Shown: piece by piece, positions 18,888 to 42,598 of the stretch
How the letters are laid out: the number at the start of each line of letters is the position of its first letter
Position numbering within the stretch: the stretch's first letter is position 1
Assembly (NCBI GenBank): GCA_947632395.1
Contig: CANRPA010000005.1
Coordinates: 1 to 44,351 of the forward strand
DNA: 44,351 bases
Direction: 5' to 3'
From: an uncultured Bacilli bacterium
GTDB taxonomy: Bacteria; Bacillota_I; Bacilli_A; RF39; UBA660
Notes under the pieces: model-generated
Told to the model about the DNA's origin: nothing
The model's database searches: none
Seen by the model: only the letters and a program-made list of their open reading frames with translations
Made by a program: the position numbers and the translations under genes

Positions 18888-21380
18888 ATGAAGTTTTTAA
18901 AAAAAATATTCAATCACGAATATAGAGAGTTAGAAAAATTTAAAGAAATAGCAAATCAAGTAATTGCGCTTGATGAAGAATATTCAAAATTATCAGATAA
19001 GGATTTGAAGCATAAAACAGAAGAATTTAAAAAAAGACTTGAAAATGGTGAAACACTTGAAGATATCAAAGTAGAAGCCTTTGCTACTGCACGCGAAGCC
19101 GCAAGTCGTGTAATAGGAGAAAAACCATATTATGTACAAATAATAGGTGGACTTGCAATTCACTATGGTAATATAGCAGAAATGAAAACAGGTGAAGGTA
19201 AAACTTTAACATCTACAATGCCTGCTTATTTAAATGCACTAACAGGTGAAGGTGTACACATAATAACAGTTAATGAATATTTAGCTGAGCGTGATGCAAA
19301 TTGGATGGGTGAAATTTATAGATTCTTAGGACTTACGGTAGGTATTAATTATCGTGAACTTTCAACTAATGATAAAAGAGAAGCTTATAATTGTGATATA
19401 TTGTACTCAACAAATAATGAAATAGGATTTGATTATTTAAGAGATAATATGGTAATAAAAGCAAGTGATAGAGTAGCACGCCCTTATAACTTTGCTATTA
19501 TAGATGAAGTAGACTCAGTATTAATAGATGAAGCTCGTACTCCACTTATTATATCAGGTGGATTTATGAAATCTGCTAATTTATATATGCAAACGGATAA
19601 ATTTGTTAAAGGATTAAAGGAAAATGATGGATATATATACGATGAAAAAACAAAAGCAGTATCACTTGATCAAAAGGGTATTGAAAAGGCAGAAAAAACA
19701 TTTGCTGTAGATAACCTATATGATATTAATAATACAAATTTAGTACACTTTATAAATCAAGCATTAAAAGCTAATTATGCTATGAAAATAGATGTAGATT
19801 ATGTAGTAAATGATGGAAAAATAGTAATAGTAGATCCATTTACAGGCCGTTTAATGCAAGGTCGTTCTTATTCAGATGGACTTCATCAAGCAATAGAGGC
19901 AAAAGAAGGAGTACAAATAAATGAGGAAACTAAGACTTTAGCAACTATTACATTTCAAAATTTATTTAGAATGTATAAAAAATTATCTGGTATGACTGGT
20001 ACAGCAAAAACAGAAGAAGAAGAATTTAGAGATATTTATAACATGTATGTTATTCAAATACCAACAAATAAGCCAATAGCTCGTAAAGATTATGGAGATT
20101 TATTATTTGCTACAAAAGAGGGTAAATATAAAGCAATAGTAAATGAAATAAAGGAACGTCATGAAAAAGGTCAACCAGTATTAGTAGGTACAATAGCAGT
20201 TGAAACAAGTGAATTAATAAGTGAAAGACTTAAAAAAATTAAAATTCCACATGAAGTATTAAATGCTAAAAATCATGCAAGAGAAGCAGAAATTATTGCT
20301 AAAGCAGGAGAAAAAGGAGCCGTTACAATAGCTACAAATATGGCAGGACGTGGAACAGATATCAAGCTTACAGACGAAGTAAAAGAACTTGGAGGACTTT
20401 TTGTAATAGGTACAGAACGTCATGAATCAAGACGTATAGATAATCAGTTAAGAGGTCGTTCAGGTCGTCAAGGAGACCCTGGAGAAAGCCAATTTTGTGT
20501 ATCATTTGAAGATGATCTTATGGTTAGATTTGGAACAGATAGAGCCAAATTAATGCTACAAAGAATAGGCTTTGGAGAAGATGTTTCAATAAGAAATAAA
20601 ATGTTATCAAGTTCAATAGAATCTGCCCAAAAAAGAGTAGAGGGTAATAATTTCGATACAAGAAAAACTTTACTTGAATATGATGATGTTATTAATGAAC
20701 AAAGATCAATAATATATGAAAAAAGAAATCAAATACTTGATATGGAATCTATTAAAGAAATAATAGAAGAAATGGTAGGAAATTTTGTTAAGGATATAGT
20801 TTATGGTCGTTTACAAGATGAAAAAGAATTAAATAGAAATGATAAATCAGAAATACTTGAAAAAATAAATGAACTTGTTAAAGATAAAGTAATCTTTGAT
20901 GAAATAGAGTATAAAAATTCTGATGAAATAATTGAATATCTAAGTCAAAAATTATTAACAGAATATCAAGATAAAGTTAAAAAGATACCAGAAGAGATTA
21001 CAAATGAATTTGAAAAGGCAATAACTTTAAGAGTAATAGATACATATTGGATGGAACATATAAATACTATGTCACATTTAAAAGAAGGAATACACCTAAG
21101 AGGTTATGGACAAAATAATCCACTAATGGAATATAAAAATGAAGGGTATGAACTATTTGATGAATTACTTGCTAGAATAGATGCTCAAGTAACTACATAT
21201 TTATTAAAAGCAGAAGTAAGGCAAAATAGTGAACGCAAAAAAGTAGCTGATAATGTATCAACTAATGAAGATAAAGTTAAACAAAAGAAAGCTACACCAA
21301 AAAGGGTACAGAAAATAGGTAGAAATGCCCCATGTCCTTGTGGTTCGGGCAAAAAGTACAAGAACTGTTGCGGAAAATGA
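18888..21380 (+). CDS. secA: Protein translocase subunit SecA
   Basis: IAEMKTGEGKTL, IDEVDSVLIDEARTPLIISG, RGRSGRQGDPGESQF, C-terminal SEC-C zinc motif CPCGSGKKYKNCCGK. Confidence 0.98.
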   Translation: MKFLKKIFNHEYRELEKFKEIANQVIALDEEYSKLSDKDLKHKTEEFKKRLENGETLEDIKVEAFATAREAASRVIGEKPYYVQIIGGLAIHYGNIAEMKTGEGKTLTSTMPAYLNALTGEGVHIITVNEYLAERDANWMGEIYRFLGLTVGINYRELSTNDKREAYNCDILYSTNNEIGFDYLRDNMVIKASDRVARPYNFAIIDEVDSVLIDEARTPLIISGGFMKSANLYMQTDKFVKGLKENDGYIYDEKTKAVSLDQKGIEKAEKTFAVDNLYDINNTNLVHFINQALKANYAMKIDVDYVVNDGKIVIVDPFTGRLMQGRSYSDGLHQAIEAKEGVQINEETKTLATITFQNLFRMYKKLSGMTGTAKTEEEEFRDIYNMYVIQIPTNKPIARKDYGDLLFATKEGKYKAIVNEIKERHEKGQPVLVGTIAVETSELISERLKKIKIPHEVLNAKNHAREAEIIAKAGEKGAVTIATNMAGRGTDIKLTDEVKELGGLFVIGTERHESRRIDNQLRGRSGRQGDPGESQFCVSFEDDLMVRFGTDRAKLMLQRIGFGEDVSIRNKMLSSSIESAQKRVEGNNFDTRKTLLEYDDVINEQRSIIYEKRNQILDMESIKEIIEEMVGNFVKDIVYGRLQDEKELNRNDKSEILEKINELVKDKVIFDEIEYKNSDEIIEYLSQKLLTEYQDKVKKIPEEITNEFEKAITLRVIDTYWMEHINTMSHLKEGIHLRGYGQNNPLMEYKNEGYELFDELLARIDAQVTTYLLKAEVRQNSERKKVADNVSTNEDKVKQKKATPKRVQKIGRNAPCPCGSGKKYKNCCGK

Positions 21381-21605: not shown

Positions 21606-22199
21606 ATGAATAAAGAAGATATTATATTAAATTTAGCTAAAAAAAATAATGGAATTATTACCACAAAAGAAGTAGTAAGTAAAAATATAAATAAGATTTT
21701 TTTGACAAGATTAGTTAATAACAAAAAACTAGAAAGAGTAAAAAAAGGTTTATATGTTTTGCCTTCTACTTGGGGTGATGAATATTTCAATTTAATTTAT
21801 GGAAATAATGCAGTTTTTTCTTATGAAACAGCTTTATATTTTTTAGAACTTTGCCAGTCGGTTCCAAGTGAATATCATATTACAGTAAATAGGGGATATA
21901 ATGGAAGTTTAAGGAAAATTAAAAAAGTGAAACTACATTTTGTGAAAAAAGAATTATTTGATTTAGGCTTAATTGAGATGAAAAGTCCTCAAGGACAATT
22001 TATAAAATGTTATAATGCAGAAAGATGTATATGTGATTTACTTAGGAATAGAGATAATCAAGATATAGAAATAATTAAATATGCTATAACAGAATATTTG
22101 AAGGATAAAAATAAGAGAAATATTCCTTTACTTCTTGATTATGCAAAAGTATTTAATATTCTAGATGATATCAATAAATATTTGGAGGTGCTAATATAA
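21606..22199 (+). CDS. abiEi: AbiEi-type antitoxin / transcriptional regulator
   Basis: N-terminal wHTH, LVNNKKLERVKKGLYVLP, FSYETALYFLELCQSVPSEYHITVNRGY; overlaps an AbiEii-like gene by 1 nt. Confidence 0.88.
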   Translation: MNKEDIILNLAKKNNGIITTKEVVSKNINKIFLTRLVNNKKLERVKKGLYVLPSTWGDEYFNLIYGNNAVFSYETALYFLELCQSVPSEYHITVNRGYNGSLRKIKKVKLHFVKKELFDLGLIEMKSPQGQFIKCYNAERCICDLLRNRDNQDIEIIKYAITEYLKDKNKRNIPLLLDYAKVFNILDDINKYLEVLI

Positions 22200-23053
22200 T
22201 GATTGATGCTGAAGATTTAAAAATTAAAGTAAAGACTAAAGCCCATGAAAATAACTTAGAACCTCAAGATATTATGCAAATGTATTTTTTTGAAAGGCTT
22301 TTATATAGAATATCAATAAGTGCATATAAATACAATTTTATATTAAAAGGTGGATTATTACTATCTGCAATATTTGGTGATGATCGTAGAACTACACAAG
22401 ATATGGATACTATGATAAAAGGAATTCCACTAGATGAAAGAAAAATAGAGAAAGTTATAAATGAGATTATTAATATAGATTGTGAAGATGGAATAAGTTA
22501 TAGTTTAAAGAAATCAAGAGAAATAAGATTAAATGATAAATATGGAGGAATTAGAGTAAACCTTCTAGGATATAAAGAACATTTACAAGTGCCACTATCT
22601 ATTGATATAACAGTAGGTGATCCAATTACTCCAAGAGAATTAGAATATAGATATAAATGTATGTTTGATGATTCTTATATTAACATTATGGCTTTTAATA
22701 TGGAAACTATTATTGCTGAAAAATTTGAAACATTCATTTCTGATAATATTATGAATACAAGAACGAAAGATTTTTATGATTTGTATATTTTATTAACTAG
22801 ATATTATGATAAAATTGATAAAAAAGTTTTAGTAAAGGCAATTAAAAACACTTTTGAAAGAAGAGAAACTGATTTTGATATAGATAAAATCATATATAAT
22901 TTTAGTAAAATAAAAGAAAGTGATAAGTTAAGATTAAATTTTAAAAATTATAAAAATAAAAAATCTTATGTATCTGATATTGATTATGATGAAATAATGA
23001 ATGCAATTAATTTGGTTATTGAATTATTAAAAAAAGAATTGGTTACAGTTTAG
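22199..23053 (+). CDS. abiEii: AbiEii-type nucleotidyltransferase toxin
   Basis: FILKGGLLLSAIFGDDRRTTQDMDTMIKG nucleotidyltransferase motif; AEKFETFISDNIMNTRTKDFYDLYIL. Confidence 0.9.
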   Translation: MIDAEDLKIKVKTKAHENNLEPQDIMQMYFFERLLYRISISAYKYNFILKGGLLLSAIFGDDRRTTQDMDTMIKGIPLDERKIEKVINEIINIDCEDGISYSLKKSREIRLNDKYGGIRVNLLGYKEHLQVPLSIDITVGDPITPRELEYRYKCMFDDSYINIMAFNMETIIAEKFETFISDNIMNTRTKDFYDLYILLTRYYDKIDKKVLVKAIKNTFERRETDFDIDKIIYNFSKIKESDKLRLNFKNYKNKKSYVSDIDYDEIMNAINLVIELLKKELVTV

Positions 23054-23771: not shown

Positions 23772-23881
23772 AAAATCACCTTTATTAATTAATTATAACA
23801 ATTTTTTGAATAAAAAGCCATTTTTGTTTAAGTTAATAGAAAAGTAGATGCTATAATTAGATTGTGAAAGGAGTGATATGC

Positions 23882-25231
23882 ATGGCATATTCAAGATGGG
23901 CGACTGAAGAAGAACTAAAGTCAAAATTAACCCAAATCAGTTATGATTCTGAAATAAAAAAATCAGGAATTCCTTTGATGTATGATGACAAATATCTTTA
24001 TATTAAAGATGATGAATCCCATACCATGGTTATAGGCTCAGCAGGAAGTGGCAAAACACAAACAACAATGCTAACTCAGTTAAGACTTGCTATTAAAGCA
24101 AATGAATCATTTGTAATTCATGATGTTAAGGGTGAGGTTTATGATTTATTATCTGGTGAACTAAAGAAACAAAATTACAATATAGTTGTGATTAATTTAG
24201 ACAATCCTACTGTAGGCAATAATTTTAATCCTTTAACTTTACCTTATGAATTATATAAGAAAGGTGAAAAAGATAAAGCTATTGAATTATTAGAAAGCAT
24301 TGGATATTATTTTTGTTGTAATGAAACATTTGATGTAAAAGCTGATCCATTTTGGGTAAATTCAGCTATCTCATTATTTATAGGTTTATCTTTATATCTA
24401 TTTGAAAATGCAACTGAAGAAGAAATAAATATTAGTAGTTTATTAAATTTAGTATCAGAATTTGAAAAATTATCAGAAGAAATTAAGAAAATGGATAAAA
24501 CATCAGCAATTTATATTAATTTGTCTAATATTGTTCTTGCCCCTAATGAAACAAGAGGAAGTATAATATCAGTATTTGTACAAAATATAAGATTATTTGT
24601 ATCAAGAGAATCATTATTAAAATTATTATCTTCAACAAATTTCAATATTGAAAATGTACAAAAAGACAAAACAGCTATATTTATAATTAGCAATAGTAAA
24701 TTTGTTTCAAAGAGATTAATTCCTTTAATTATTGAAGAATGTTATTTTGCTGCAACTATGACTAATGATAAAACTCGTAGATTAAATATAGTTTTAGATG
24801 ATTTTGAAAATTTGATTCCAATTAGAGAATTTAATAATATGTTGACACTTGCAAGAAGTAATAATATAAAATTTAGTATCTTTGTAAGAAGTATATTAGA
24901 ATTAAGAAATATTTATGGAGTAGAAGGTACTGAAATATTAAAAATGGTATTTGGAAATATCATATACTTATTAGCAAATGATATTGAAACATTACAAGAT
25001 ATTTCAAAACTATGTGGTAATCAAAAATCTGAATATGGAATAGAACCTTTAATTTCCGTTGAAGAATTAAAATTACTTAATACTTTTGAGGCTATTGTTT
25101 TAATTCCCAGAATTAATCCTATAAGAACTAAATTATTACCTGATTATAAAATTGATTGGAAATTTAGTGAAGAAAAAGTTCCTATGCAAGAGTTTAAAAA
25201 TAAAACTGTTAAAGCATTTTGTATAAAATAA
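23882..25231 (+). CDS. Soluble VirD4/TraG-like P-loop ATPase (orphan coupling-protein homologue)
   Basis: TMVIGSAGSGKTQTTMLTQL Walker A, SFVIHDVKGEVYDLLSGEL, NNFNPL, LNIVLDDFENL Walker B; no N-terminal TM helices; start moved downstream of GAAAGGAG. Confidence 0.82.
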   Translation: MAYSRWATEEELKSKLTQISYDSEIKKSGIPLMYDDKYLYIKDDESHTMVIGSAGSGKTQTTMLTQLRLAIKANESFVIHDVKGEVYDLLSGELKKQNYNIVVINLDNPTVGNNFNPLTLPYELYKKGEKDKAIELLESIGYYFCCNETFDVKADPFWVNSAISLFIGLSLYLFENATEEEINISSLLNLVSEFEKLSEEIKKMDKTSAIYINLSNIVLAPNETRGSIISVFVQNIRLFVSRESLLKLLSSTNFNIENVQKDKTAIFIISNSKFVSKRLIPLIIEECYFAATMTNDKTRRLNIVLDDFENLIPIREFNNMLTLARSNNIKFSIFVRSILELRNIYGVEGTEILKMVFGNIIYLLANDIETLQDISKLCGNQKSEYGIEPLISVEELKLLNTFEAIVLIPRINPIRTKLLPDYKIDWKFSEEKVPMQEFKNKTVKAFCIK

Positions 25232-25307: not shown

Positions 25308-25463
25308 GTGATAGTAAACGAATGCAAACAATGTTTGCAAATTAGTCTTAAAAATAACAATAATATAATAAATACTGAAGCATGTTCAACTTGTAAGACT
25401 GGTAAGAAATACAAAAATTGTTGTGGAAAAGTGGTAATTTTTATAAGTTTTTGCGAAGTATAG
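25308..25463 (+). pseudogene. Short ORF/remnant with a SEC-C-like zinc motif
   Basis: GTG-initiated 51-aa frame: VIVNECKQCLQ...EACSTCKTGKKYKNCCGK...; a TAA three codons upstream separates it from an ATG-initiated segment in the same frame. Confidence 0.45.
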
Positions 25464-25593: not shown

Positions 25594-25621
25594 AAATCAG
25601 CATTTGTGCTGATTTTTATTT
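25594..25621 (+). terminator. Intrinsic terminator upstream of the T7SS locus
   Basis: AAATCAGCA - tttg - TGCTGATTT then TTATTT. Confidence 0.7.
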
Positions 25622-25923: not shown

Positions 25924-28900
25924 ATGAAATTATATGTAATGAATGGGAAACAAATAAATAAATATGCCTTACCATTTCAAAGTGAAGAATTTTATTCATT
26001 CGATTGCTTTTTTGATGGCTTTAGTGAAAAATGTACTATAACTTTACATAATATTAATAATATTTGGTACCTAAAAAGTAATGGTATGGTAAACGTTATA
26101 AACAATAATCAAAGTGTTTTAGATAAAATTCAATTAGTAGAGTATGGAATTTATTATATAAAAGTTCTTGGAATGAATAAATATGTTGGAATATATGCAA
26201 TGCCAAGTCAAGAAAAAAATTTATTAGAGTTTTCATACAAAAATATAAATAATATTACTATAGGTAATGGTTCAAATTGTAATATAAATTATAATAACCA
26301 ATTCATTTCAGGCGTGTATGCTACTATACAATTTAAAGCAAATGAGTGGATTATAAGTGGGAATGTAAACTCAAAAACTGGAATATTTGTTAATGATAAA
26401 AATGTCAAATCTGCAAAATTGAAGTATGGTGATGTTATTTTCATTTTTGGATTAAAAATAATTTGGATGCCAACTTTTTTAAAAATTAATAACCCTAACA
26501 ATATGGTTAAAATTACAGGGCTCAGTATATATATGAGTGAAGATATAGTTGATAATGTTAATGTACAAAGCGTAACTGATGAAGAATCTGCAATTGAATT
26601 ATATAAAGAGGATGATTATTTTTATCACATTCCTAGAATTAAAGAAACTATTGAAGAAGAAGAAATTTCAATAGACCCACCTCCAACTTCACAAATTCAA
26701 GAAGAAATGCCATTTTGGCTTACTTTAGGAACAAGTTTAACCCTTGTTGCATCATCTATAGTTATGATTTTTAATATATATAATAATGTTGTAGCAGGAC
26801 GAAATGTTTTAATGTTAATTCCACAAATAATAATGTTATTTGCAATGGTAGTTGGAAGTTTTGTTATGCCTAACTTACTAAAAAGATATCAAAAGAAAAG
26901 GGCTAAAAAAAGAGAAAAGTTAAGACAAACCAGATATAAAGAATATTTGGAAACAAAAAAACAAGAAATTGAAAAAATTTTAAGACATCAAAATGAAGTT
27001 TTACTTCAAAATAATTATAATGATATTAAATGTATAGAAGCTATAAGATCTAATAACCGTATTTTGTGGAGTAGAGAAATTTTTGATGATGATTTTTTAA
27101 ATATTAGATTGGGATTAGGAAATTTTCCCGCAAGTTTACATATTAATGCCCCAGAGGAACATTTTACTTTAGATAAGGATAATTTGTTTCAAGCAGTTTA
27201 TGATGTTGTTGATGCTTCAAAAATTTTAAAAAATGTTCCAATAACTTATTCCTTTCTAGAAAATAATATAAGTTCATTTATATTTAATAGTACTCAAAAA
27301 AATAATTATATAAACGATATAATGTTAAAATTGTTAACATTTCATAGTGGTACAGATTTAAAGATAGTTATTTTTACTAATAAAAATAGAGAAAATTTTT
27401 GGAATTACTTGAAAATTCTACCACATTGTTGGAATGATGAAAAAAGTGTGAGATTTTTTGCAACGGATTCTTCTGAAATTAATGAGGTATCAGCGGTTTT
27501 AGATGCAGAATTTAAACAAAGAAAGGAAATGTTCAGCAGTAATTCAGGTGAGTCAGAAAATATTGATAAGAACAAATGCTACAAAAATTTTATTCCATAT
27601 TATCTAATAATAACTGATGATTATCAAAATGCTAAAAATAGTCAAATAATATTGGATATTTTAAAAACTAAACAAAATTATGGATTTTCTTTATTAACTA
27701 TAGCAGATTCAATGAAGTCAATACCAAATAAATGTGAAAAATTTATTCAAATTGGTGAGAAAGATGGGTGCATATTAAATAAAGAATTAAATTCTAAATC
27801 ACAGCAAGAATTTTTAATTGAAAAATTACACACTATAGATATGGAAGAAATTTGCATGAAATTAGCTAATATTCCTCTTATGCCTAAAGATGGTCTTAAA
27901 GAGTTTCCAACATCTTTGCCTTTTTTAGAAATGTATAATGTGTCAAAGATAGAACAATTAAATATTTTAAATAGATGGCAAACAAATAATCCGGTTACAT
28001 CTTTATCAACTATTGTCGGTGTACATAAAGATATGGAATTATTTAAACTAGATTTGCATGAAAAACATCATGGACCACATGGCCTTGTTGCAGGTATGAC
28101 AGGATCAGGTAAATCAGAATTTATAATAACATATATTTTATCTATGGCTGTTAATTATCATCCATATGAAGTTCAGTTTGTTCTTATAGATTATAAAGGT
28201 GGTGGACTTGCTGGAGCTTTTGAAAATAAAGAAACAAATATTAGAATTCCACATTTAATAGGTACGATAACAAATTTGGATACTAGTGAAATGAATAGAA
28301 CGCTAGTATCTATAGATAGTGAATTAAAAAGAAGACAAAAGATTTTTAATGAAACAAAAGATTTGTTAGGTGAAAGTACTATTGATATATATAAATATCA
28401 AAGGTTATATCGTGAAGGAAGAGTAAAAAAACCAATGGCTCATTTGTTTATAATATGTGATGAATTTGCTGAATTAAAAAGCCAACAACCTGATTTTATG
28501 AATCAATTGGTTTCTACTGCAAGAATTGGTAGATCATTGGGTGTTCATTTAATATTGGCAACACAAAAACCTAGTGGCGTTGTAAATGATCAAATTTGGA
28601 GTAATTCTAAATTTAAGGTATGTTTAAAGGTTCAGGATAGAAGTGACAGTATGGAAATGTTGAAGAGACCTGAAGCTGCAAGTATAAAAGAGGCTGGAAG
28701 ATTTTATTTACAAGTAGGTTATGATGATTATTTTGATATTGGTCAGTCAGCATGGTGTGGAGCTAAATATGTTCCTGCCAATAAAATTATTAAAAAAATT
28801 GATGATTCTATTAGTTTTGTAAATAACACAGGATATACTATAAAATCAATAAATGATGCTGTAGTTAAAGAGGTATCTGCAGATTTAGGAGATCAATTAA

Positions 28901-30561
28901 CAAATATAGTAAAGCATATTTGTAATTTATCTGAAAAATACAATATTAAAACAGAAAAATTATGGTTAGATAAAATACCAGAGATTATTTACGTTAATAA
29001 ATTAAAAGAAAAATATAATTATAAAGCAAAACCATATTGCATTACTCCAATTATAGGTGAATATGATAGCCCTAGTACTCAATCACAAGGCCTTTTAAAT
29101 TTAGATTTGACATTTGGTGGTAATACTGTAATATATGGTCAAAGCGGAAGTGGTAAAGAAAATTTACTTTCAACAATAATATGGTCAACATTTATTGAGC
29201 ATACAACAGATGAAGTAAATATTTATGTAATAGATTGTGGTGCTGAAACACTTAAAATGTTTAGTAAAATTCCTCATGTTGGAGAAGTTGTTGATATAGG
29301 TGATTCGGACAAAATTTATGAAATTTTTAATTTAGCCTTTCAAGAAGTAGAAACTAGAAAAGAGCTTTTTTCTGATTATGCTGGAAATTATGTCAATTAT
29401 TGTCAAAATAGTGGTAATAAACTTCCTTTAATTATAATAATTATAAATAACTATGATAGCTTTATTGAATCGTATTCAAAATTATCTGAAGATGTACAAT
29501 CAATATATCGTGAATGTAGTAAATATGGTATAAAATTTATAATATCAACTGTTAACCCTTCAACTATACGTAGTAAGATGCTTCAAAATTTTGAAAATAA
29601 AATTTCTTTACAATTAGGTAGTGATGATGCTTATAGAAATTTATTTGGTGCTCCAAGAGGACTATTACCTTCTAAAGTCTTTGGAAGAGGAATTGTTCTT
29701 AAAGATAATAACTTTTATGAATTTCAAACTGCATATTTTACAAATCCAAATCAAATGAGTAATGTTTTAAGAACAGTATCTCAAAAATTAAACTCATATT
29801 ATACTAAAAAGGCAAAAAAAATATTTATAATACCTGAAAAGATTGGACTAAATTCAATAATTAAGGAATCAAAAGGATTATCTAAAATAGCATTAGGTTA
29901 TAATATTGAAAAGAAAGAAATTGAAACATATAATTTCATATCAAACAAAATAAATTTAATTTTGTCAGAAGAAATGAGTGAAAAAATAGATTTTATATAT
30001 GCATTAGTAAGACAATTTGCTATGAATGAAAAAACGAATATTATTATTCTTGATTTTGTCAATGCTTTTGAAAAAGAGATTTCTAACACTGTAAAATTTA
30101 ATAATAATTTTGATTCTATTTTTAATTCGATATATTCTAATTTAAAAAATGATAAAACAAGTAAAGTTAAAAACATGTATGTATTTATAGGGCCTGGTGC
30201 TATCAAAAACGTAGTAAGTGAAAATACTTATGAAATTATCAAAAAAATATTTACAAATGTAAATTCATTAGAAAACAATTTCTTTGTATTTGCAGATGAC
30301 TATGATAATATTAAAAATTTAAAATTAGAAGATTGGTTCCAATCTGGAGTCAACAATTCTAATGGTATATGGTTAGGTGAAGGTATTGCTAATCAAATGA
30401 TGATTAACGTTTCTGATTTATCTTTAGATGATAGAAAGAGAAGTTTCCCATATATGGGTTATACTATAGTAAATGGTAAAAGCAAATGTATAAAATGTGT
30501 ATTAGATGAAGAAATAAGTAATAATGAAGAAAAGGAGGCTATAGTATTAGATGAAAAATAA
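25924..30561 (+). CDS. essC: Type VII secretion EssC-like FtsK/SpoIIIE ATPase (FHA + 2 TM + ATPase domains)
   Basis: N-terminal FHA-like domain, two TM segments (WLTLGTSLTLVASSIVMIF; MLIPQIIMLFAMVVGSFVM), D1 GMTGSGKSEF with IICDEFAELK, D2 GQSGSGKE; start moved to MKLYVMNG. Confidence 0.95.
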   Translation: MKLYVMNGKQINKYALPFQSEEFYSFDCFFDGFSEKCTITLHNINNIWYLKSNGMVNVINNNQSVLDKIQLVEYGIYYIKVLGMNKYVGIYAMPSQEKNLLEFSYKNINNITIGNGSNCNINYNNQFISGVYATIQFKANEWIISGNVNSKTGIFVNDKNVKSAKLKYGDVIFIFGLKIIWMPTFLKINNPNNMVKITGLSIYMSEDIVDNVNVQSVTDEESAIELYKEDDYFYHIPRIKETIEEEEISIDPPPTSQIQEEMPFWLTLGTSLTLVASSIVMIFNIYNNVVAGRNVLMLIPQIIMLFAMVVGSFVMPNLLKRYQKKRAKKREKLRQTRYKEYLETKKQEIEKILRHQNEVLLQNNYNDIKCIEAIRSNNRILWSREIFDDDFLNIRLGLGNFPASLHINAPEEHFTLDKDNLFQAVYDVVDASKILKNVPITYSFLENNISSFIFNSTQKNNYINDIMLKLLTFHSGTDLKIVIFTNKNRENFWNYLKILPHCWNDEKSVRFFATDSSEINEVSAVLDAEFKQRKEMFSSNSGESENIDKNKCYKNFIPYYLIITDDYQNAKNSQIILDILKTKQNYGFSLLTIADSMKSIPNKCEKFIQIGEKDGCILNKELNSKSQQEFLIEKLHTIDMEEICMKLANIPLMPKDGLKEFPTSLPFLEMYNVSKIEQLNILNRWQTNNPVTSLSTIVGVHKDMELFKLDLHEKHHGPHGLVAGMTGSGKSEFIITYILSMAVNYHPYEVQFVLIDYKGGGLAGAFENKETNIRIPHLIGTITNLDTSEMNRTLVSIDSELKRRQKIFNETKDLLGESTIDIYKYQRLYREGRVKKPMAHLFIICDEFAELKSQQPDFMNQLVSTARIGRSLGVHLILATQKPSGVVNDQIWSNSKFKVCLKVQDRSDSMEMLKRPEAASIKEAGRFYLQVGYDDYFDIGQSAWCGAKYVPANKIIKKIDDSISFVNNTGYTIKSINDAVVKEVSADLGDQLTNIVKHICNLSEKYNIKTEKLWLDKIPEIIYVNKLKEKYNYKAKPYCITPIIGEYDSPSTQSQGLLNLDLTFGGNTVIYGQSGSGKENLLSTIIWSTFIEHTTDEVNIYVIDCGAETLKMFSKIPHVGEVVDIGDSDKIYEIFNLAFQEVETRKELFSDYAGNYVNYCQNSGNKLPLIIIIINNYDSFIESYSKLSEDVQSIYRECSKYGIKFIISTVNPSTIRSKMLQNFENKISLQLGSDDAYRNLFGAPRGLLPSKVFGRGIVLKDNNFYEFQTAYFTNPNQMSNVLRTVSQKLNSYYTKKAKKIFIIPEKIGLNSIIKESKGLSKIALGYNIEKKEIETYNFISNKINLILSEEMSEKIDFIYALVRQFAMNEKTNIIILDFVNAFEKEISNTVKFNNNFDSIFNSIYSNLKNDKTSKVKNMYVFIGPGAIKNVVSENTYEIIKKIFTNVNSLENNFFVFADDYDNIKNLKLEDWFQSGVNNSNGIWLGEGIANQMMINVSDLSLDDRKRSFPYMGYTIVNGKSKCIKCVLDEEISNNEEKEAIVLDEK

Positions 30562-30805
30562 AGTATTAGTTGAGATAATAGTACCAGTACTTGATGAAAG
30601 ATATAGCCTTTTTTTACCAATAAATAAACGTATAGGTAAAATAATTACACTCATTAATAAAGCAATAACAGAATTATCAGGAAATTCATATGTTTTAAAC
30701 AATAGTGCATCATTATACAACAGAATAACAGGAGTTAGATATCAGGCTAACATGTTGATTAGTGAAACAGATATAAGAAATGGTGCTGTTTTGGTTCTTG
30801 ATTAA
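30551..30805 (+). CDS. esaB: YukD/EsaB-like ubiquitin-fold protein
   Basis: 84 aa; VLVEIIVPVLDERYSLFLPINKRIGKIITLINKAI...GAVLVLD; overlaps essC 3' end. Confidence 0.82.
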   Translation: MKNKVLVEIIVPVLDERYSLFLPINKRIGKIITLINKAITELSGNSYVLNNSASLYNRITGVRYQANMLISETDIRNGAVLVLD

Positions 30806-30824
30806 TAGATAGGGGGGGAAAACT

Positions 30825-32498
30825 ATGATTAAAAATTTAAAAATATTTACTAATAAAAAAAATCACAAATTTTCATTGAAAAAAGGTGTTACCTTTGCAG
30901 CAATGACTGTTTTAGTTACACTACCACTTGCTGCATGTTCAAAACAATCAAATTTAAATACAAATTTTAACGATAATGATAATGTTTATAGTGTAACTGA
31001 TGAATACAATAATTCAAATTCAAAAGATGATGGATTTAATGATTTAAATTCAGAAGATGTTGGATTTGAAGAAAATTTTGAACAAAACTATATTAATTCC
31101 TTTTTGAATTCAACTATAGTATTTGATAATGCTGATGTTGAAAATCTCAGTAATAAAATCAGTTCAATTAATGTAGATTTTAAATATTCAAATTTTTATA
31201 ATCTAGATGCTGCAATGAGCAAATATAATAATTTAAAAGAGATTAATGTAACAAATAACAATATTATAAAAATAAATTCAAATGATTTATTTGATATTGT
31301 TAAAAAAAATAATGATGAATATATGAAATCCTATAAGGGGAGTAAATATACACCATTATCGGATTCATTATTAAAACAAATTTGTAATTACTTGACTTTG
31401 AGTATTAATAGTGAAGTAGATAGTCATACAAATTATTCTGATTTGAATGAAAAAATTCAAAAATTAAAAATATTTAATTATAATGATTTTGCTTATGCAT
31501 TTTATGATAATAACATAGATATATTAGGAGTTAGTGTTAATTCTATACAGACAATAAATGAAGAAAATTCATTAGAAAGATTAATAACTCATGAAGGCAA
31601 ACATTTTATGCAATCAATAAAAAATGATTTTGATGGATCGTATACAATGCGTTATGGAATAAGTTATAAGTGGGATGATTTAGCTGTTAATAGTTTATAT
31701 AATGAATGGTTTTTTGAGGCAAGTGCAGAACAATTAACTATTAATCAAATAGGAAATGAAGGAAAATGTTTGTATGAAAGCGGCATAAATTTTTTAGAAA
31801 TGATAAAAACATCAACTCTTTTGTCTGAGAAAAATGGAATAAATGATTTAGAAAAGATTTCTCTACAGGGTGATTTAAATAATTTATTTGATTATTTTGG
31901 TTGCAACACAGAAAAAGAAAAAATGGAAGTTTTAAAACTTATGTTTGCTTACAATATAATTATAACTACAGATCCACAATCTTCTGTTAATGAATTTTAT
32001 GACAATTATAATAAGGAAAGTGGACATAAACTTAGTTACATAGATAAATTGGATTATAGTGATTATTTATTAAGCCCAATTTCAGAAGTGCTTTCAAAAA
32101 AATTTTACAAAAATTTGATTTATTCAATTAGAAATAAAGAAATAACTATTGAAGAATTATTTTCAATAATAAGTGTATTTGAAATGCAACTTAATAAACA
32201 GTGTAGATATTATGAAAGTTCAAAGACTAAATATTTAGAAAGTTTATATACAACATATAATGATATACAATCTGAATTGTTTGAATGTATATCATCAAAA
32301 TTAAAAATTTCAAAAGAAGATATACAAGAACTATATAATGCTTATTATAAAAATTTTAATACTCCAAATATAAAGTTTATGTTAGAAGATAAAAATTCAT
32401 TCTATAGTGAATTGTATAATAAAAATAAGTATTTTAGAATGGATAGCATTAATGCATATTATAATAAATATTTATCAGGAAATAACAAGAAATATTAG
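30825..32498 (+). CDS. Lipoprotein with HExxH zinc-metallopeptidase motif in T7SS locus
   Basis: Lipobox LPLAAC; LERLITHEGKHFMQ with downstream EWFFEASAEQ consistent with a gluzincin third ligand. Confidence 0.7.
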   Translation: MIKNLKIFTNKKNHKFSLKKGVTFAAMTVLVTLPLAACSKQSNLNTNFNDNDNVYSVTDEYNNSNSKDDGFNDLNSEDVGFEENFEQNYINSFLNSTIVFDNADVENLSNKISSINVDFKYSNFYNLDAAMSKYNNLKEINVTNNNIIKINSNDLFDIVKKNNDEYMKSYKGSKYTPLSDSLLKQICNYLTLSINSEVDSHTNYSDLNEKIQKLKIFNYNDFAYAFYDNNIDILGVSVNSIQTINEENSLERLITHEGKHFMQSIKNDFDGSYTMRYGISYKWDDLAVNSLYNEWFFEASAEQLTINQIGNEGKCLYESGINFLEMIKTSTLLSEKNGINDLEKISLQGDLNNLFDYFGCNTEKEKMEVLKLMFAYNIIITTDPQSSVNEFYDNYNKESGHKLSYIDKLDYSDYLLSPISEVLSKKFYKNLIYSIRNKEITIEELFSIISVFEMQLNKQCRYYESSKTKYLESLYTTYNDIQSELFECISSKLKISKEDIQELYNAYYKNFNTPNIKFMLEDKNSFYSELYNKNKYFRMDSINAYYNKYLSGNNKKY

Positions 32499-32536
32499 AA
32501 ATAGCAAAAAAAAGTGTAAAGTTATTTAAAAAAATA

Positions 32537-32565
32537 TTGCAAAATTTTAACATGTGTGATATAGT
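32537..32565 (+). promoter_or_regulatory. Internal promoter upstream of the WXG100-like gene set
   Basis: TTGCAA - 17 bp - TATAGT, about 40 bp before the next start codon. Confidence 0.55.
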
Positions 32566-32606
32566 AAAGACAAGGTAGGTTTGTAGATAATAAGGAGTTG
32601 ATTGTA

Positions 32607-32900
32607 TTGACAAATGTTGTAGGAATAAATGAGCAAAAAATTGATAAATTAATCAATGAAATTTATTTCTACTCAAATAGAATTAAAATGGTTTTAGATC
32701 AGGCAGATTCTATAGTAGAAAATACAAATTCTTTTTATGATTGTGAAAGTGCAAAAATGTTTAGAAGTGCATTTGAGAAATATAAAAGGAACTTTAATAT
32801 TATCAACAAAAATATCTTAAGTTATTCTGACGATTTATCATCAGTTAAAAATTTTTATCGAAACAAAGCACAGATGTTTTCGGTAAATTTAAAAAAATAA
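32607..32900 (+). CDS. Small helical WXG100-like protein (TTG start; motif degenerate)
   Basis: About 97 aa, all-helical look, SFYDCESAKMFRSAFEKY at the WXG hairpin position; in T7SS operon; start uncertain (32598 or 32607). Confidence 0.6.
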   Translation: MTNVVGINEQKIDKLINEIYFYSNRIKMVLDQADSIVENTNSFYDCESAKMFRSAFEKYKRNFNIINKNILSYSDDLSSVKNFYRNKAQMFSVNLKK

Positions 32901-32919
32901 ATGTTAGGTGGTGAAAAAA

Positions 32920-33282
32920 ATGGGACTTTTCGGAGGAATAGGAGGAACAACTACAGCAATGAGTAAAGGTGCTTCTGATACAGGAATATCTGATTTAACT
33001 GTAGGTATATCTATATCAGGTATGGAGGCTTACATTCAACAATTAAAAGCAGATTTATTAGATACTTCAATCGAAAAAATTAATGATACATCAAATATGT
33101 TGAATGCAATAAATTCTGGTTGGCAAGGAGCTTCAAGGGATAGATTTATTGAAGATTTTAATGCTGCAAGAGAAGCAATTGCAAACGATTTAAGAGCAGA
33201 GTATAATGATTTGGCTGCAAGATTACAAGAGTTACAAGATAATTATTTTAGACAGGATGATGAATTATATGAAAAATTATAA
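32920..33282 (+). CDS. WXG100 family protein
   Basis: NAINSGWQGASRDRFIEDFNAAREAI central WXG motif; about 120 aa; ATG at 32920. Confidence 0.85.
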   Translation: MGLFGGIGGTTTAMSKGASDTGISDLTVGISISGMEAYIQQLKADLLDTSIEKINDTSNMLNAINSGWQGASRDRFIEDFNAAREAIANDLRAEYNDLAARLQELQDNYFRQDDELYEKL

Positions 33283-33296
33283 GGAGGTAAGAAATT

Positions 33297-33794
33297 ATGG
33301 CAAATTGGAATGTTGAAAGTTCAAAATCAGGTTGGGCTACGAATTCGATAGTTAATAATTTTAAATCACAAAGAGAGTCTACTAGAAGTGCTGGAATTGG
33401 TTCGGATATGTGGAGCCAGGTTGTTAAAGGTATTTCTAATTTCTTTAGTGGTGGTGGCTATAGTGTTGTTGGTATAAATGCAACTAAAGTTGAAGAAATG
33501 AGAAATGCTATAAGAGAGTATGTTAGAGCTATCCAAGCACATTTAGATGGTATAGATCCAACAACTAATGCTAATGGTGCTTTTAAAGGTGAAGAAATAC
33601 AAAATGCTGTCAGAAGTTACGTAGAAAGATTGAAACAATATTCTAAAGACTTAACATCACAATTACTCGCATTTAGCGATAAGTTAAAAGATGTTGCAGA
33701 TGCATGGGAAGCATATAATAAAAGTATGGCAGAGAATGTTACTTCTACTTCTTCTTCATTTGGTAATAATGGTGCTTATACTGAACAGAAGTAG
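33297..33794 (+). CDS. WXG100-like / T7SS-associated helical protein
   Basis: 165 aa; NANGAFKGEEIQNAVRSYVERLKQYSKDL (FKG in place of WXG); operon context. Confidence 0.65.
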   Translation: MANWNVESSKSGWATNSIVNNFKSQRESTRSAGIGSDMWSQVVKGISNFFSGGGYSVVGINATKVEEMRNAIREYVRAIQAHLDGIDPTTNANGAFKGEEIQNAVRSYVERLKQYSKDLTSQLLAFSDKLKDVADAWEAYNKSMAENVTSTSSSFGNNGAYTEQK

Positions 33795-33806
33795 TTGGTT
33801 GCGTTT

Positions 33807-34091
33807 ATGTCGGAATTAGATTTATTAAGCAGTTATAAAAATAAGTATATTCAATTATATAATGACATTAATAGAATAATAACTAATTTGAAATCTGCTA
33901 TTGATATGTTAGATTCTGCTTACAATAATTTTGAAAATTGCTATGTCGTGGATGATTATCCATACAATTCAGATGCAATAAAAAAAATTAAGCAAGAATT
34001 GGTAAATGAAAAAAATGATTTACAAAATAAAGTACTTTATTCAATAAATCTAAAAATTTCAGATTACAATAAAAGAATATCCAATTTATAA
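33807..34091 (+). CDS. Small helical T7SS-associated protein
   Basis: MSELDLLSSYKNKYIQLYNDINRIITNLKSAIDML; operon context; start at internal ATG (TTG 33795 also possible). Confidence 0.55.
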   Translation: MSELDLLSSYKNKYIQLYNDINRIITNLKSAIDMLDSAYNNFENCYVVDDYPYNSDAIKKIKQELVNEKNDLQNKVLYSINLKISDYNKRISNL

Positions 34092-34143
34092 ATCAATAAT
34101 TGATTTTATGCAGTTCACATATATATAAATAATAATCTGCAAG

Positions 34144-34174
34144 AACTAGATTATGAATAATCTAGTTTTATTTT
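34144..34174 (+). terminator. Intra-operon hairpin/attenuator candidate
   Basis: AACTAGATTAT - ga - ATAATCTAGTT perfect 11-bp arms then TTATTTT, immediately before AGGAGG. Confidence 0.6.
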
Positions 34175-34187
34175 AGGAGGTAACAAA

Positions 34188-34478
34188 TTGATAAAAATTG
34201 ATACAAAAAAAGTCAATGAAAGTGGACATGATTTGATGTTGTTATCTGATGAATTAGGGCAATTAATAGATGAACTTTTTTTAAGGTTAACATGTATGAA
34301 TACTAAGACATTTGAATGGGTAGGTAAAGCAGCGGATGAATATATTAGAAATTTAAAAAATGAAAAAACTGAATATGTTATATTTAAAAATGAGTTACAT
34401 GATTTTGGAAAATATTTAACAGTTGTTGCAAATACATATGAATCAAAAATTGAAAGTTGTAGGTATGATAAAAAATGA
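34188..34478 (+). CDS. WXG100 family protein (TTG start)
   Basis: KTFEWVGKAADEYIRNLKNEK, WVG motif; AGGAGG RBS before TTG. Confidence 0.75.
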   Translation: MIKIDTKKVNESGHDLMLLSDELGQLIDELFLRLTCMNTKTFEWVGKAADEYIRNLKNEKTEYVIFKNELHDFGKYLTVVANTYESKIESCRYDKK

Positions 34479-34789
34479 CAAAATTACTTTTAAATACTAC
34501 TTTTTTAAAAAAAAATGTTATTGATAAGTTAGATTTATCTATTGATAGTTTACGTCAATGCTATTCTACATCATGTCGTCTTAATGTTCCAGATGATTTT
34601 GAATATCAAAATATGTTAAAATCACTAACTTATGATATTAATAAAATCAAGAATGAGATTTCTAATTTTAAGGATTCAATGGATAATAATGTTATTACAT
34701 ATGATAGGACTGAAGATAGTTTTGTTTCTACTGCTAATAATTTAGGAAAAAATGTTATAAAAAAAAGAACAACATTAATGTTAAAATAG
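34475..34789 (+). CDS. Small helical T7SS-associated protein
   Basis: 104 aa, 4-nt overlap with upstream WXG100 gene. Confidence 0.6.
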   Translation: MTKLLLNTTFLKKNVIDKLDLSIDSLRQCYSTSCRLNVPDDFEYQNMLKSLTYDINKIKNEISNFKDSMDNNVITYDRTEDSFVSTANNLGKNVIKKRTTLMLK

Positions 34790-34808
34790 AATAAAAGGTG
34801 GGATGTAA

Positions 34809-35687
34809 ATGTTTACTAAAAAATTTCTTCCAATTGGTACAATATGTAAAATTAATAAAGTCGATTCTTTGGTTATGATTATAGGTTATTTCATGTACAA
34901 ATATAATGATGGTATTGAAAAATATGATTATTCTGTATGTTTATATCCTGAAGGATTATATATGTCATCAAATTTATTTGGTATTAATCATGATGAAATT
35001 ATAGAAATAGTTAAAATTGGCTATATTAATGATAATTTTGAAAGTTTAAATAGTGAATTACATAAATATGAAATGTCTGTGCCTGTTAAGAGTGTTGAAA
35101 ATAAAATAGATATTTTATTTGATGAAAATGGTGTAGTTATAGGTGTAGGTAACGAAAAAATAGATTCATCTAATATTTCTAAAACTGAAAATAATTTGAA
35201 ATTTAATTCAAATGGAGTGGTTTTAGACGATGGAAATAGTACAAAACAAGGATCAAACTTTAAAACTAACTTAAAATTTGATTCAAATGGAGTTATTTTA
35301 GACGATGGAAATAGTACAAAACAAGGATCAAACTTTAAAACTAACCTAAAATTTGATTCAAATGGAGTTATTTTAGACGATGGAAATAGTACAAAACAAG
35401 AATCAAGTCCTAAAACTAATTTAAAATTTAATTCAAATGGAGTAGTTTTAGATGATGAAAATAGTACAAAACAAGAATCAAGTCCTAAAACTAATTTAAA
35501 ATTTAATTCAAATGGAGTAGTTTTAGATGATGAAAATAGTACAAAACAAGAATCAAGTCCTAAAACTAATTTGAAATTTAATTCAAGTGGAGTAGTTTTA
35601 GATGATGAAAATAGCAATAAACAAGAATCAAACTCTAAAACTAACTTAAAATTCGATTCAAATGGATTTGTTGTATCAGAAAATTAG
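34809..35687 (+). CDS. DUF4176-like T7SS-associated protein with C-terminal 25-aa tandem repeats
   Basis: N-term FLPIGTICKI...LVMIIGYF...YDYSVCLYPEGLY..FGINHDEIIEIVKIGY matches the DUF4176 pattern; C-term repeats NLKFNSNGVVLDDENSTKQESSPKT. Confidence 0.8.
   Translation: MFTKKFLPIGTICKINKVDSLVMIIGYFMYKYNDGIEKYDYSVCLYPEGLYMSSNLFGINHDEIIEIVKIGYINDNFESLNSELHKYEMSVPVKSVENKIDILFDENGVVIGVGNEKIDSSNISKTENNLKFNSNGVVLDDGNSTKQGSNFKTNLKFDSNGVILDDGNSTKQGSNFKTNLKFDSNGVILDDGNSTKQESSPKTNLKFNSNGVVLDDENSTKQESSPKTNLKFNSNGVVLDDENSTKQESSPKTNLKFNSSGVVLDDENSNKQESNSKTNLKFDSNGFVVSEN
35193..35684 (+). repeat. 75-bp (25-aa) coding tandem repeat, six full units plus one partial
   Basis: Units begin at 35193, 35268, 35343, 35418, 35493, 35568; partial 35643-35684; degenerate unit just upstream. 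Confidence 0.95.
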
Positions 35688-35803
35688 ATTATACTAAATA
35701 TTAAATAATCTAAATTTTAGACATATTAAATTTTTTGAAACTAATTTAAAAAACATAAAATTAAGTAATCTTATGAAATAAAAATATGAAGGAAATATTT
35801 TAG

Positions 35804-35838
35804 ATAACAACATCTAACTAAATGTTGTTATTTTTTTG
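35804..35838 (+). terminator. Intrinsic terminator at the end of the T7SS operon
   Basis: ATAACAACAT - ctaactaa - ATGTTGTTAT then T run. Confidence 0.8.
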
Positions 35839-38067: not shown

Positions 38068-39090
38068 TGTTGATTTAAAACTCGTATATTGGCGAGTTTT
38101 TTTATAACGATAAAAGTTAAATAAATAATAAAAAACTTCTTGCTAAACAATACATATTAAAATTTGTTTGATATAATATATGTAGTTAAACCATAATAAA
38201 ATGAGGTGTTATTGTGAATATTGAAAATATACAAAATGTTTTGTTTGAATGTTATTCAAAAGATTTATGTTATCCTAAAGTTCAAAACGAATGGAAGATG
38301 AAAATAAATGCTTTGGAATGTGTGCAATAACATCTCTAATTATTAATGATTATTTTGGTGGAGAATTTGTAAAATTCATGTGGATGGAATTAGTCATTAT
38401 TTTAATTTAGTAGAAGATAAAATTATAGATTTAACTTCAATTCAATTTAATCATGAAATTGATTATAAAGAATATCAAATTATAGATAGACAAAAAATAT
38501 TAACTGCTGATACAAAGACTAGATATCACATACTAAAGTCAAAATTAATTAAAGCATTATTAAAACAGGTAGATGAAAAAGTATATTCTTGTAAATCTTG
38601 TGATAAGTTAGTTGATAAATTTCCTAATGATGAAACAGTATTTCTTGGAAAAGATCAGACAATAGTATTAGTTGGAGAAGCACCTGCAAATAATGGTTGG
38701 AGAAAAAGTCATAAATTATGGTGTGATATAAATGGAAAAGTATTACCTAGTGGAGTTGTATTACAAAAGTTATTTGATATTATTGACAGAAATATTTTTG
38801 AAACTACATTTTTAGAATCAGTTAAGTGCTATCCACTTGAAAGAAAAAATTTAAAAACATGTTCTAGTAATTGTAAAGATATAATGTTAGAACAATTAAA
38901 AATATTAAATCCTAAATTAATCATTACTTTAGGAGAATTTCCAACTAGAAATTTACTTAATTTTAAATTTAATAAGTTTGCCGATGTAGTTGGCAATATA
39001 TATGAAGTTAATGGTTATAAAATATTACCTATTTATCATCCTAGTCCTATATCTCCAAAGAGTTATAAATGTAATGCTCCTATATTTGAA
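38062..39090 (+). repeat. Long direct repeat, copy 1
   Basis: Starts GCCCCATGTTGATTTAAAACTCGTATA inside tRNA-His 3' end; near-identical to 41750 onward (offset 3688) up to the deletion point. Confidence 0.95.
38078..38103 (+). terminator. tRNA-His terminator
   Basis: AAACTCG - tatattgg - CGAGTTT + T run; duplicated at 41766-41791. Confidence 0.75.
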
Positions 39091-39120
39091 AATTTAAGAG
39101 ATTTATTGATAGATATATAG
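38214..39120 (+). pseudogene. YunG-like domain fused to UDG-like domain, with two frameshifts
   Basis: Frame a VNIENIQNVLFECYSKDLCYPKVQNEW; frame b EDENKCFGMCAITSLIINDYFGGEFVK; frame c HVDGISHYFNLVEDKIIDLTSIQF leading into the UDG ORF. Confidence 0.7.
38380..39120 (+). CDS. Uracil-DNA glycosylase-like domain ORF (3' intact part)
   Basis: CKSC, LVGEAPANNGW, KCYPLERKNLKTCSSNC, LITLGEFPTRNLL, ILPIYHPSPISP motifs of Fe-S UDG families. Confidence 0.75.
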   Translation: MDGISHYFNLVEDKIIDLTSIQFNHEIDYKEYQIIDRQKILTADTKTRYHILKSKLIKALLKQVDEKVYSCKSCDKLVDKFPNDETVFLGKDQTIVLVGEAPANNGWRKSHKLWCDINGKVLPSGVVLQKLFDIIDRNIFETTFLESVKCYPLERKNLKTCSSNCKDIMLEQLKILNPKLIITLGEFPTRNLLNFKFNKFADVVGNIYEVNGYKILPIYHPSPISPKSYKCNAPIFENLRDLLIDI

Positions 39121-41749: not shown

Positions 41750-42530
41750 GCCCCATGTTGATTTAAAACTCGTATACTGGCGAGTTTTTTTATAACGATA
41801 AAAGTTAAATAAATAATAAAAAACTTCTTGCTAAACAATACATATTAAAATTTGTTTGATATAATATATGTAGTTAAACCATAATAAAATGAGGTGTTAT
41901 TGTGAATATTGAAAATATACAAAATGTTTTGTTTGAATGTTATTCAAAAGATTTATGTTATCCTAAAGTTCAAAACGAATGGAAGATGAAAATAAATGCT
42001 TTGGAATGTGTGCAATAACATCTCTAATTATTAATGATTATTTTGGTGGAGAATTTGTAAAATTCATGTGGATGGAATTAGTCATTATTTTAATTTAGTA
42101 GAAGATAAAATTATAGATTTAACTTCAATTCAATTTAATCATGAAATTGATTATAAAGACTATCAAATTATAAATGGAAAAGTATTACCTAGTGGAGTTG
42201 TATTACAAAAACTATTTGATATTATTGACAGAAATATTTTTGAAACTACATTTTTAGAATCAGTTAAGTGTTATCCACTTGAAAGAAAAAATTTAAAAAC
42301 TTGTTCTAGTAATTGTAAAGATATAATGTTAGAACAACTAAAAATATTAAATCCAAAATTAATTATTACTTTAGGAGAATTTCCAACTAGAAATTTACTT
42401 AATTTTAAATTTAATAAGTTTGCCGATGTAGTTGGTAATATATATGAAGTTAATGGCTATAAAATATTACCTATTTATCATCCTAGTCCTATATCTCCAA
42501 AAAGTTATAAAGGTAATATACCTATATTTA
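41750..42530 (+). repeat. Long direct repeat, copy 2 (with 246-bp internal deletion)
   Basis: Copy of 38062-39090; the interval 38485-38730 is missing; junction in TATA microhomology. Confidence 0.95.
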
Positions 42531-42598
42531 AAAAATTAAAAGAGTTTGATAAAGAAATTATTAAATTGTTTGATAAAGAAATTATTAAATTCTCTTGA
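41902..42598 (+). pseudogene. Second copy of the YunG-like/UDG-like gene, same frameshifts plus in-frame deletion
   Basis: Same GTG start and frameshift positions as copy 1; UDG motifs CKSC and GEAPANNGW deleted. Confidence 0.75.

What the first reader, a model, noticed from the sequence alone, without database searches (positions are those of the whole stretch)
25924..35687. Compact T7SSb-like locus without recognisable EssA, EssB/YukC or EsaA
Seen: EssC, a YukD/EsaB-like protein and five or six small helical proteins (two with clear WXG motifs, WQG and WVG) lie in one + strand series bounded by terminators at 25594 and 35804. Established: canonical T7SSb loci (Staphylococcus, Bacillus) also encode EsaA, EssA and the pseudokinase EssB/YukC. 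Here the slot between EsaB and the WXG100 genes is taken by a lipoprotein of unknown family, and no LXG-type toxin is seen. Inference: either a reduced machine with a substitute component, or the missing subunits are elsewhere in the genome.
Basis: partly seen in the sequence, partly recalled or inferred. Interest (0 to 1): 0.72.

Follow-up and report, generated by a model that had tools for sequence, protein, structure and literature searches.

The report
Stripped-down type VII secretion locus
In a family of uncultured gut bacteria the type VII protein-export machine consistently lacks three parts that textbook versions need, and this copy carries its own set of six small cargo-like proteins plus a surface-anchored protein that looks like a zinc protease.

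Summary
No EssB/YukC, EssA, EsaA or LXG protein is detectable in the locus or the rest of the 92.6%-complete genome. In the same taxonomic family, EssC exceeds its curated cut-off in 110 of 245 genomes and EssB in none; in the class outside the family, 4 of 5 EssC-bearing genomes have EssB. EsaB lies next to EssC in 78 of 85 loci and is the only partner shared by all types of locus. So this is a lineage-wide EssC+EsaB system, not an assembly gap. T7SS variants without EssA/EssB/EsaA are published (T7SSc-j); this set matches none of them as described.

The lipoprotein is not a stand-in for EssB: it occurs in few of these genomes. It is a putative zinc metalloprotease (HExxHxxQ plus a downstream Glu, invariant in 15 of 15 relatives), tied to one EssC clade. 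That clade travels with six small helical proteins (four in the WXG100 superfamily) and sometimes a DUF4176/Ltc-type chaperone with 4-8 FDxNGxV motifs.

Most likely mechanism (inferred): EssC+EsaB export the small-protein complexes and the protease acts outside, perhaps as a mycosin analogue. New variant of a known kind.

The parts
25594..25615 (+). Terminator-like hairpin upstream of the locus
25924..30561 (+). EssC/TsxC-type ATPase, 1545 aa: FHA domain without the usual phosphothreonine residues, two TM helices, intact first ATPase domain (GMTGSGKS, CDEFAEL), second domain with GSGKE in place of GKS/T
30551..30805 (+). EsaB/YukD-like protein, 84 aa, overlaps the 3' end of essC
30825..32498 (+). 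Lipoprotein (lipobox LAAC, Cys38), putative zinc metalloprotease of a family absent from Pfam; H256-E257-H260-Q263 and E298 invariant in 15 of 15 relatives
32607..32900 (+). Small helical protein p1 (97 aa), WXG100 superfamily by profile, WXG replaced by YDC
32920..33282 (+). Small helical protein p2, WXG100 family (WQG)
33297..33794 (+). Small helical protein p3 (165 aa), WXG100-like core (FKG in place of WXG) with a long N-terminal extension
33807..34091 (+). Small helical protein p4 (94 aa), not related to WXG100 by profile
34142..34173 (+). Internal hairpin followed by a U-rich tract, possible attenuator between p4 and p5
34188..34478 (+). Small helical protein p5, WXG100 family (WVG)
34475..34789 (+). 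Small helical protein p6 (104 aa), not related to WXG100 by profile
34809..35687 (+). DUF4176 (Ltc-chaperone-type) protein with a tail of 8 copies of an F[DN]xxGxV/I motif, seven of them in 75-bp tandem repeats
35802..35825 (+). Terminator-like hairpin followed by T-run

Best explanation
This is an EssB/EssA/EsaA-free type VII secretion system typical of one family of uncultured gut Bacilli. Shown: the shared, recurring machine genes are EssC and EsaB alone. Shown: this locus belongs to one EssC clade whose members share a cargo module of six small helical proteins, four of them WXG100-superfamily, arranged as two triplets (p1-p2-p3 and p4-p5-p6); most members also have a surface-anchored putative zinc metalloprotease and some a DUF4176 (Ltc-type) chaperone with a repeated FDxNGxV tail. 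Inferred: EssC with EsaB exports complexes of the small proteins as the main substrates (no toxin is present). Inferred: the DUF4176 protein holds them, or an unknown partner, in the cytoplasm through its repeats. Inferred: the metalloprotease acts on the outer face of the membrane, cleaving exported proteins or trimming the envelope at the export site, like the mycosin of T7SSa in place though not in ancestry.
For: EssB 0/245, EssC 110/245 in the family; EssA, EsaA, LXG absent from 35 family genomes apart from false hits, HtrA-like and YhgE/Pip-like; EsaB adjacent in 78/85 loci; EssC tree with module-B EssCs in one supported clade; EssC and lipoprotein distances correlate, Pearson 0.78, 0 of 5000 permutations as high; catalytic residues invariant 15/15; zincin-like model, pLDDT 80, top Foldseek hits LTA4H and M48/M13 peptidases though none significant; WXG100 kinship of p1, p2, p3, p5; triplets duplicated or placed as units (L102, L147); DUF4176 = Ltc chaperones (PMC13355648); MycP is a protease needed for T7SSa complex stability (PMC5082899).
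Against: No secretion, proteolysis or interaction data exist. EssB, EsaA or EssA too divergent for the profiles cannot be excluded; EsaA and EssA were searched in 35 family genomes, not 245. The lipoprotein is absent from clade members L102 and L103 and not seen in L147, so it is not essential to the module; distant relatives of it occur without T7SS nearby (L097-L101). The DUF4176 gene is missing from about half of the module-B loci. Foldseek E-values are 0.035 or worse.
Confidence: 0.5

Rival explanations
1. Missing subunits are present but so divergent, or encoded so far away, that profiles miss them; the machine is an ordinary T7SSb.
For: Such proteins diverge fast; EsaA and EssA are poorly conserved even in canonical systems; a MAG at 92.6% completeness can lose genes.
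Against: EssB over cut-off 0/245 family genomes, yet the same profile finds it in G035, whose EssC is only 33% identical to ours. Canonical loci in the class keep the gene order EsaA-EssA-EsaB-EssB-EssC (L161-L163), whereas here the flanks of EssC+EsaB hold no membrane protein conserved across locus types (the TM proteins in type A loci are fixed-site neighbours such as a ZIP transporter and HtrA).
Confidence: 0.2
2. The lipoprotein metalloprotease is an independent surface enzyme or effector, and its link with EssC is operon hitch-hiking rather than function.
For: It has its own Sec/lipoprotein signal, distant relatives exist without T7SS nearby (L097-L101), and in G071 it lies apart from EssC.
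Against: All 11 genomes with strong hits also have EssC (10 over cut-off, G071 split over two contigs) against about 45% expected; distances covary with EssC; two clade members without it (L032, L034) have a different membrane-anchored HExxH protein directly upstream of EssC with weak profile similarity.
Confidence: 0.25
3. The lipoprotein is a substitute for EssB or EsaA.
For: It sits in the slot after EsaB and is membrane-anchored.
Against: Strong hits in 11 of 245 genomes while 110 have EssB-less EssC; type A and toxin-type loci lack it altogether.
Confidence: 0.04

Closest known systems
T7SSb (Staphylococcus Ess, Bacillus Yuk)
   Same: EssC with N-terminal FHA region, TIGR03928 above cut-off; EsaB/YukD-like partner; WXG100 proteins; DUF4176 (Ltc) protein
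   Different: No EssA, EssB/YukC, EsaA or LXG toxin in the locus, genome or sampled family; EssC clade separate from the EssB-linked EssCs
T7SSc-T7SSj (Garrett et al. 2024, PMC11217815)
   Same: Core of TsxA, TsxB, TsxC without EssA/EssB/EsaA; T7SSg is similarly small
   Different: None of the extra components described there (kinase, PPM phosphatase, DUF6382-FHA protein, EspG-like chaperone, vWA protein, TsxI, Tad-linked TsgL) is recognised in this locus; the HExxH lipoprotein is not among their components
Mycosin MycP of T7SSa (PMC5082899)
   Same: Membrane-anchored protease on the outer face, encoded with a T7SS
   Different: MycP is a subtilisin-like serine protease; this is a putative zinc metalloprotease, unrelated, and not universal in its system
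Ltc chaperones (DUF4176) and Lap partners of LXG toxins (PMC13355648)
   Same: DUF4176 domain; small helical partners encoded alongside
   Different: No LXG toxin to serve; long tail with repeated FDxNGxV motifs

Membership tests
Type VII secretion system (broad) | EccC/EssC membrane ATPase | tested here: met
   TIGR03928 966 bits vs cut-off 778; YukB and EccC structures matched
Type VII secretion system (broad) | WXG100 protein encoded with it | tested here: met
   p2 WXG100 E=2.3e-5, just below the curated cut-off; WQG/WVG motifs; profile kinship of p1, p2, p3, p5
Type VII secretion system (broad) | Exports WXG100 proteins | not testable with these tools
   Needs experiment
T7SSb | EssB/YukC | tested here: not met
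   Absent from own genome; 0/245 family genomes over cut-off
T7SSb | EssA | tested here: not met
   Absent; sole hit in 58 genomes lies in an HtrA-like protease
T7SSb | EsaA | tested here: not met
   Absent; the G024 hit is a YhgE/Pip-like protein away from EssC; the weak G023 hit (1.5e-4) was not inspected
T7SSb | EsaB/YukD | tested here: met
   Adjacent 84-aa family; 4/16 members match YukD at E<0.01, best 3e-4, below Pfam's cut-off
T7SSc-T7SSj | Subtype-specific partners (kinase, PPM, DUF6382, EspG-like, vWA, TsxI, TsgL) | tested here: not met
   No Pfam/NCBIfam match to these in the locus; 'EspG-like' was defined by fold and not tested by fold here
T7SSc-T7SSj | EssC falls in the subtype's phylogenetic group | not tested
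   Reference TsxC sequences of c-j were not available to place on the tree
Zinc metalloprotease (gluzincin type) | HExxH plus downstream Glu ligand in a zincin-like fold | tested here: inconclusive
   Residues invariant 15/15, model strand-helix order fits, but Foldseek E>=0.035 and activity untested

The most novel reading that the evidence does not exclude
EssC and EsaB alone form a working type VII translocon in a wall-bearing bacterium, a natural minimal machine, with lineage-specific EssC clades each bound to its own cargo set; in this clade a surface zinc metalloprotease matures a toxin-free export complex of six small proteins.
Probability: 0.3. Interest if true: 0.8.

Novelty: new variant of a known kind. 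Interest (0 to 1): 0.55.

Why it matters
Which parts of a type VII system actually move protein across the membrane is unsettled. A large natural family in which only EssC and EsaB are shared, next to relatives with the full set, makes the question testable: either EssB/EssA/EsaA are not needed for translocation as such, or an unrelated set replaces them. The co-inherited protease and the repeat-bearing DUF4176 protein point to accessory functions not in the published subtypes.

Tried and rejected
EssB, EssA and EsaA hits in relatives were inspected where they looked strongest: the EssA hit is the membrane segment of an HtrA-like protease, the EsaA hit in G024 a YhgE/Pip-like protein; the sub-threshold YukC hits are partial, below cut-off and the one inspected (L051) is not EssB-like. 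A conserved 434-aa neighbour of EssC proved to be Ffh (recognised by sequence). Pfam, NCBIfam and PDB sequence searches with the lipoprotein gave nothing. A first model from six sequences was poor. A literature search for T7SS in RF39-type bacteria found nothing relevant. Two papers on DUF4176/Ltc chaperones were not held.

Full report
WHAT IS THERE. The window is contig C5 of a 1.31-Mb metagenome-assembled genome, 92.6% complete. The nearest named relatives are uncultured Bacilli from gut samples, such as 'Bacillales bacterium UBA5578'; I infer an RF39-type lineage but did not test this. The locus runs on the + strand: EssC (25924-30561), an 84-aa EsaB-like protein (30551-30805), a lipoprotein (30825-32498), six small helical proteins (32607-34789) and a DUF4176 protein (34809-35687). 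Hairpins resembling terminators lie at 25594 and 35802; a third sits between the fourth and fifth small genes (34142-34173), so the series may not be a single transcript.

ARE THE SUBUNITS REALLY MISSING? Profiles for YukC/EssB, EsaA, EssA and LXG find nothing in this genome, while B. subtilis rings as control. In 245 genomes of the same family EssC passes its cut-off in 110 and EssB in none. Among the sampled class members outside the family, EssC passes in five (G324, G332, G295, G035, G515) and EssB is present in the first four. Three of these show genes of the sizes and order expected for EsaA-EssA-EsaB-EssB-EssC (L161-L163). The profile therefore works at this distance: EssC of G035 is only 33% identical to ours. 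EsaA and EssA were searched in 35 family genomes only. Their hits there were an HtrA-like protease, a YhgE/Pip-like protein and one weak, uninspected EsaA hit in G023.

WHAT STAYS WITH EssC. I called genes around 85 full-length EssCs of the family. EsaB is adjacent in 78; several of the exceptions are at contig ends. No other protein is shared across locus types. Three broad types appear: type A, at a fixed chromosomal site, with EssC-EsaB and two ~70-aa helical proteins (one related to WXG100 by profile); toxin-like loci with WXG100 proteins, a large variable protein and a short DUF4176 protein; and the type seen here.

THE MODULE IN THIS LOCUS. On an EssC tree (FastTree, 93 rows) the EssCs of this module fall into one supported clade of 19, separate from type A and from the EssB-linked EssCs. 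Two further rows labelled as carrying the lipoprotein (L021_12, L022_1) fall elsewhere only because they are tandem neighbours of a module-type EssC. The six small proteins form two triplets. In L021, L022 and L024 the lipoprotein gene lies within the series; in L102 the first triplet is duplicated. Profile comparison links p1 with p3 (96.7%), p1 with p5 (95.9%) and p2 with p3 (90.6%); p4 and p6 are unrelated to them. In this genome the only WXG100 hit is in this locus.

THE LIPOPROTEIN. It has a lipobox (LAAC, Cys38) and, in 15 of 15 relatives, invariant H256-E257-H260-Q263 and E298-A301, the pattern of a gluzincin-type zinc metalloprotease. The 15-sequence model has mean pLDDT 80, with the HExxH helix after three strands and E298 on the next helix. 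Foldseek's best hits are leukotriene A4 hydrolase and M48/M13 peptidases, but none is significant (best E=0.035). No Pfam family matches. All 11 genomes with strong hits also carry EssC, 10 over the cut-off and one split over contigs; distances of the two proteins correlate (Pearson 0.78, Mantel 0/5000, n=12; not corrected for shared descent of the genomes). L032 and L034, in the same EssC clade, have instead a membrane-anchored HExxH protein directly upstream of EssC with weak profile similarity to it (hhalign 59%).

THE DUF4176 PROTEIN. DUF4176 proteins are now called Ltc chaperones; [quoted passage not shown] In the module loci that have one, it carries a tail with repeated FDxNGxV motifs. 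By the pattern used, counts were 4-8 in the window, L021, L022, L024, L049 and L090. L089 counted 1 by that pattern, but its printed sequence shows five more copies written FDANGVV. In toxin-type loci the count is 0 or 1. In the window seven of eight copies lie in 75-bp tandem repeats. What the motif binds is unknown.

THE ATPASE. The first ATPase domain is intact (GMTGSGKS; CDEFAEL). The second has GSGKE in place of GKS/T, as in most of the family. The FHA domain lacks the usual phosphothreonine residues here, while type A EssCs keep SRxxA and SKYGTYVN. The window also encodes a LysM protein and a FemAB protein, consistent with a cell wall that exported proteins would have to cross.

MECHANISM. 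Shown: the gene content, its distribution and its co-inheritance. Inferred: EssC and EsaB export the small-protein complexes; the DUF4176 protein acts before export; the metalloprotease acts outside. MycP offers a precedent for a protease that T7SSa needs for complex stability (PMC5082899), but the two are unrelated in sequence and in catalytic type.

PLACE AMONG KNOWN SYSTEMS. T7SS variants without EssA/EssB/EsaA are published as T7SSc-j, all with TsxC and nearly all with TsxA and TsxB (PMC11217815). The present set fits none of them by the components they list, but I could not put their TsxC sequences on the tree. I file it as a new variant of a known kind. Because EssB-free systems are known, the surprise is moderate; the near absence of any other shared component, across 110 genomes, is what deserves attention.

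Noticed in passing
window 23864-25231: A VirD4/TraG-like conjugation coupling ATPase (T4SS-DNA_transf, E=6.7e-36) stands just upstream of EssC with no other conjugation gene recognised nearby.
   Followed up: partly
window 21606-23053: AbiEi/AbiEii type IV toxin-antitoxin pair upstream of the locus.
   Followed up: partly
window 25379-25434: Fragment resembling the SecA C-terminal metal-binding tail (ACSTCKTGKKYKNCCGK), near the complete secA at 18888-21380; looks like a decayed partial copy.
   Followed up: no
window 38380-39120 and 42068-42598: Two near-identical uracil-DNA-glycosylase-like genes 3.7 kb apart, the second with an internal deletion.
   Followed up: no
L155 (G441), L156 (G370): Another family of the class (f19) has shorter EssC-like proteins (1252-1365 aa) with an 84-aa neighbour, WXG100-like genes and, in L155, a DUF4176 protein, and no EssB detected; long branches on the EssC tree.
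   Followed up: partly
L104-L135, e.g. L025:6590-11641: Type A loci: EssC-EsaB plus two ~70-aa helical proteins at a fixed site between conserved housekeeping-type genes; their FHA domain keeps the canonical phosphothreonine residues although no EssB is present.
   Followed up: partly
L029:12356-15988, L028:8015-12250: Large variable proteins (1210 and 1411 aa) in sister EssC loci with no Pfam match; candidate exported toxins of these systems.
   Followed up: partly
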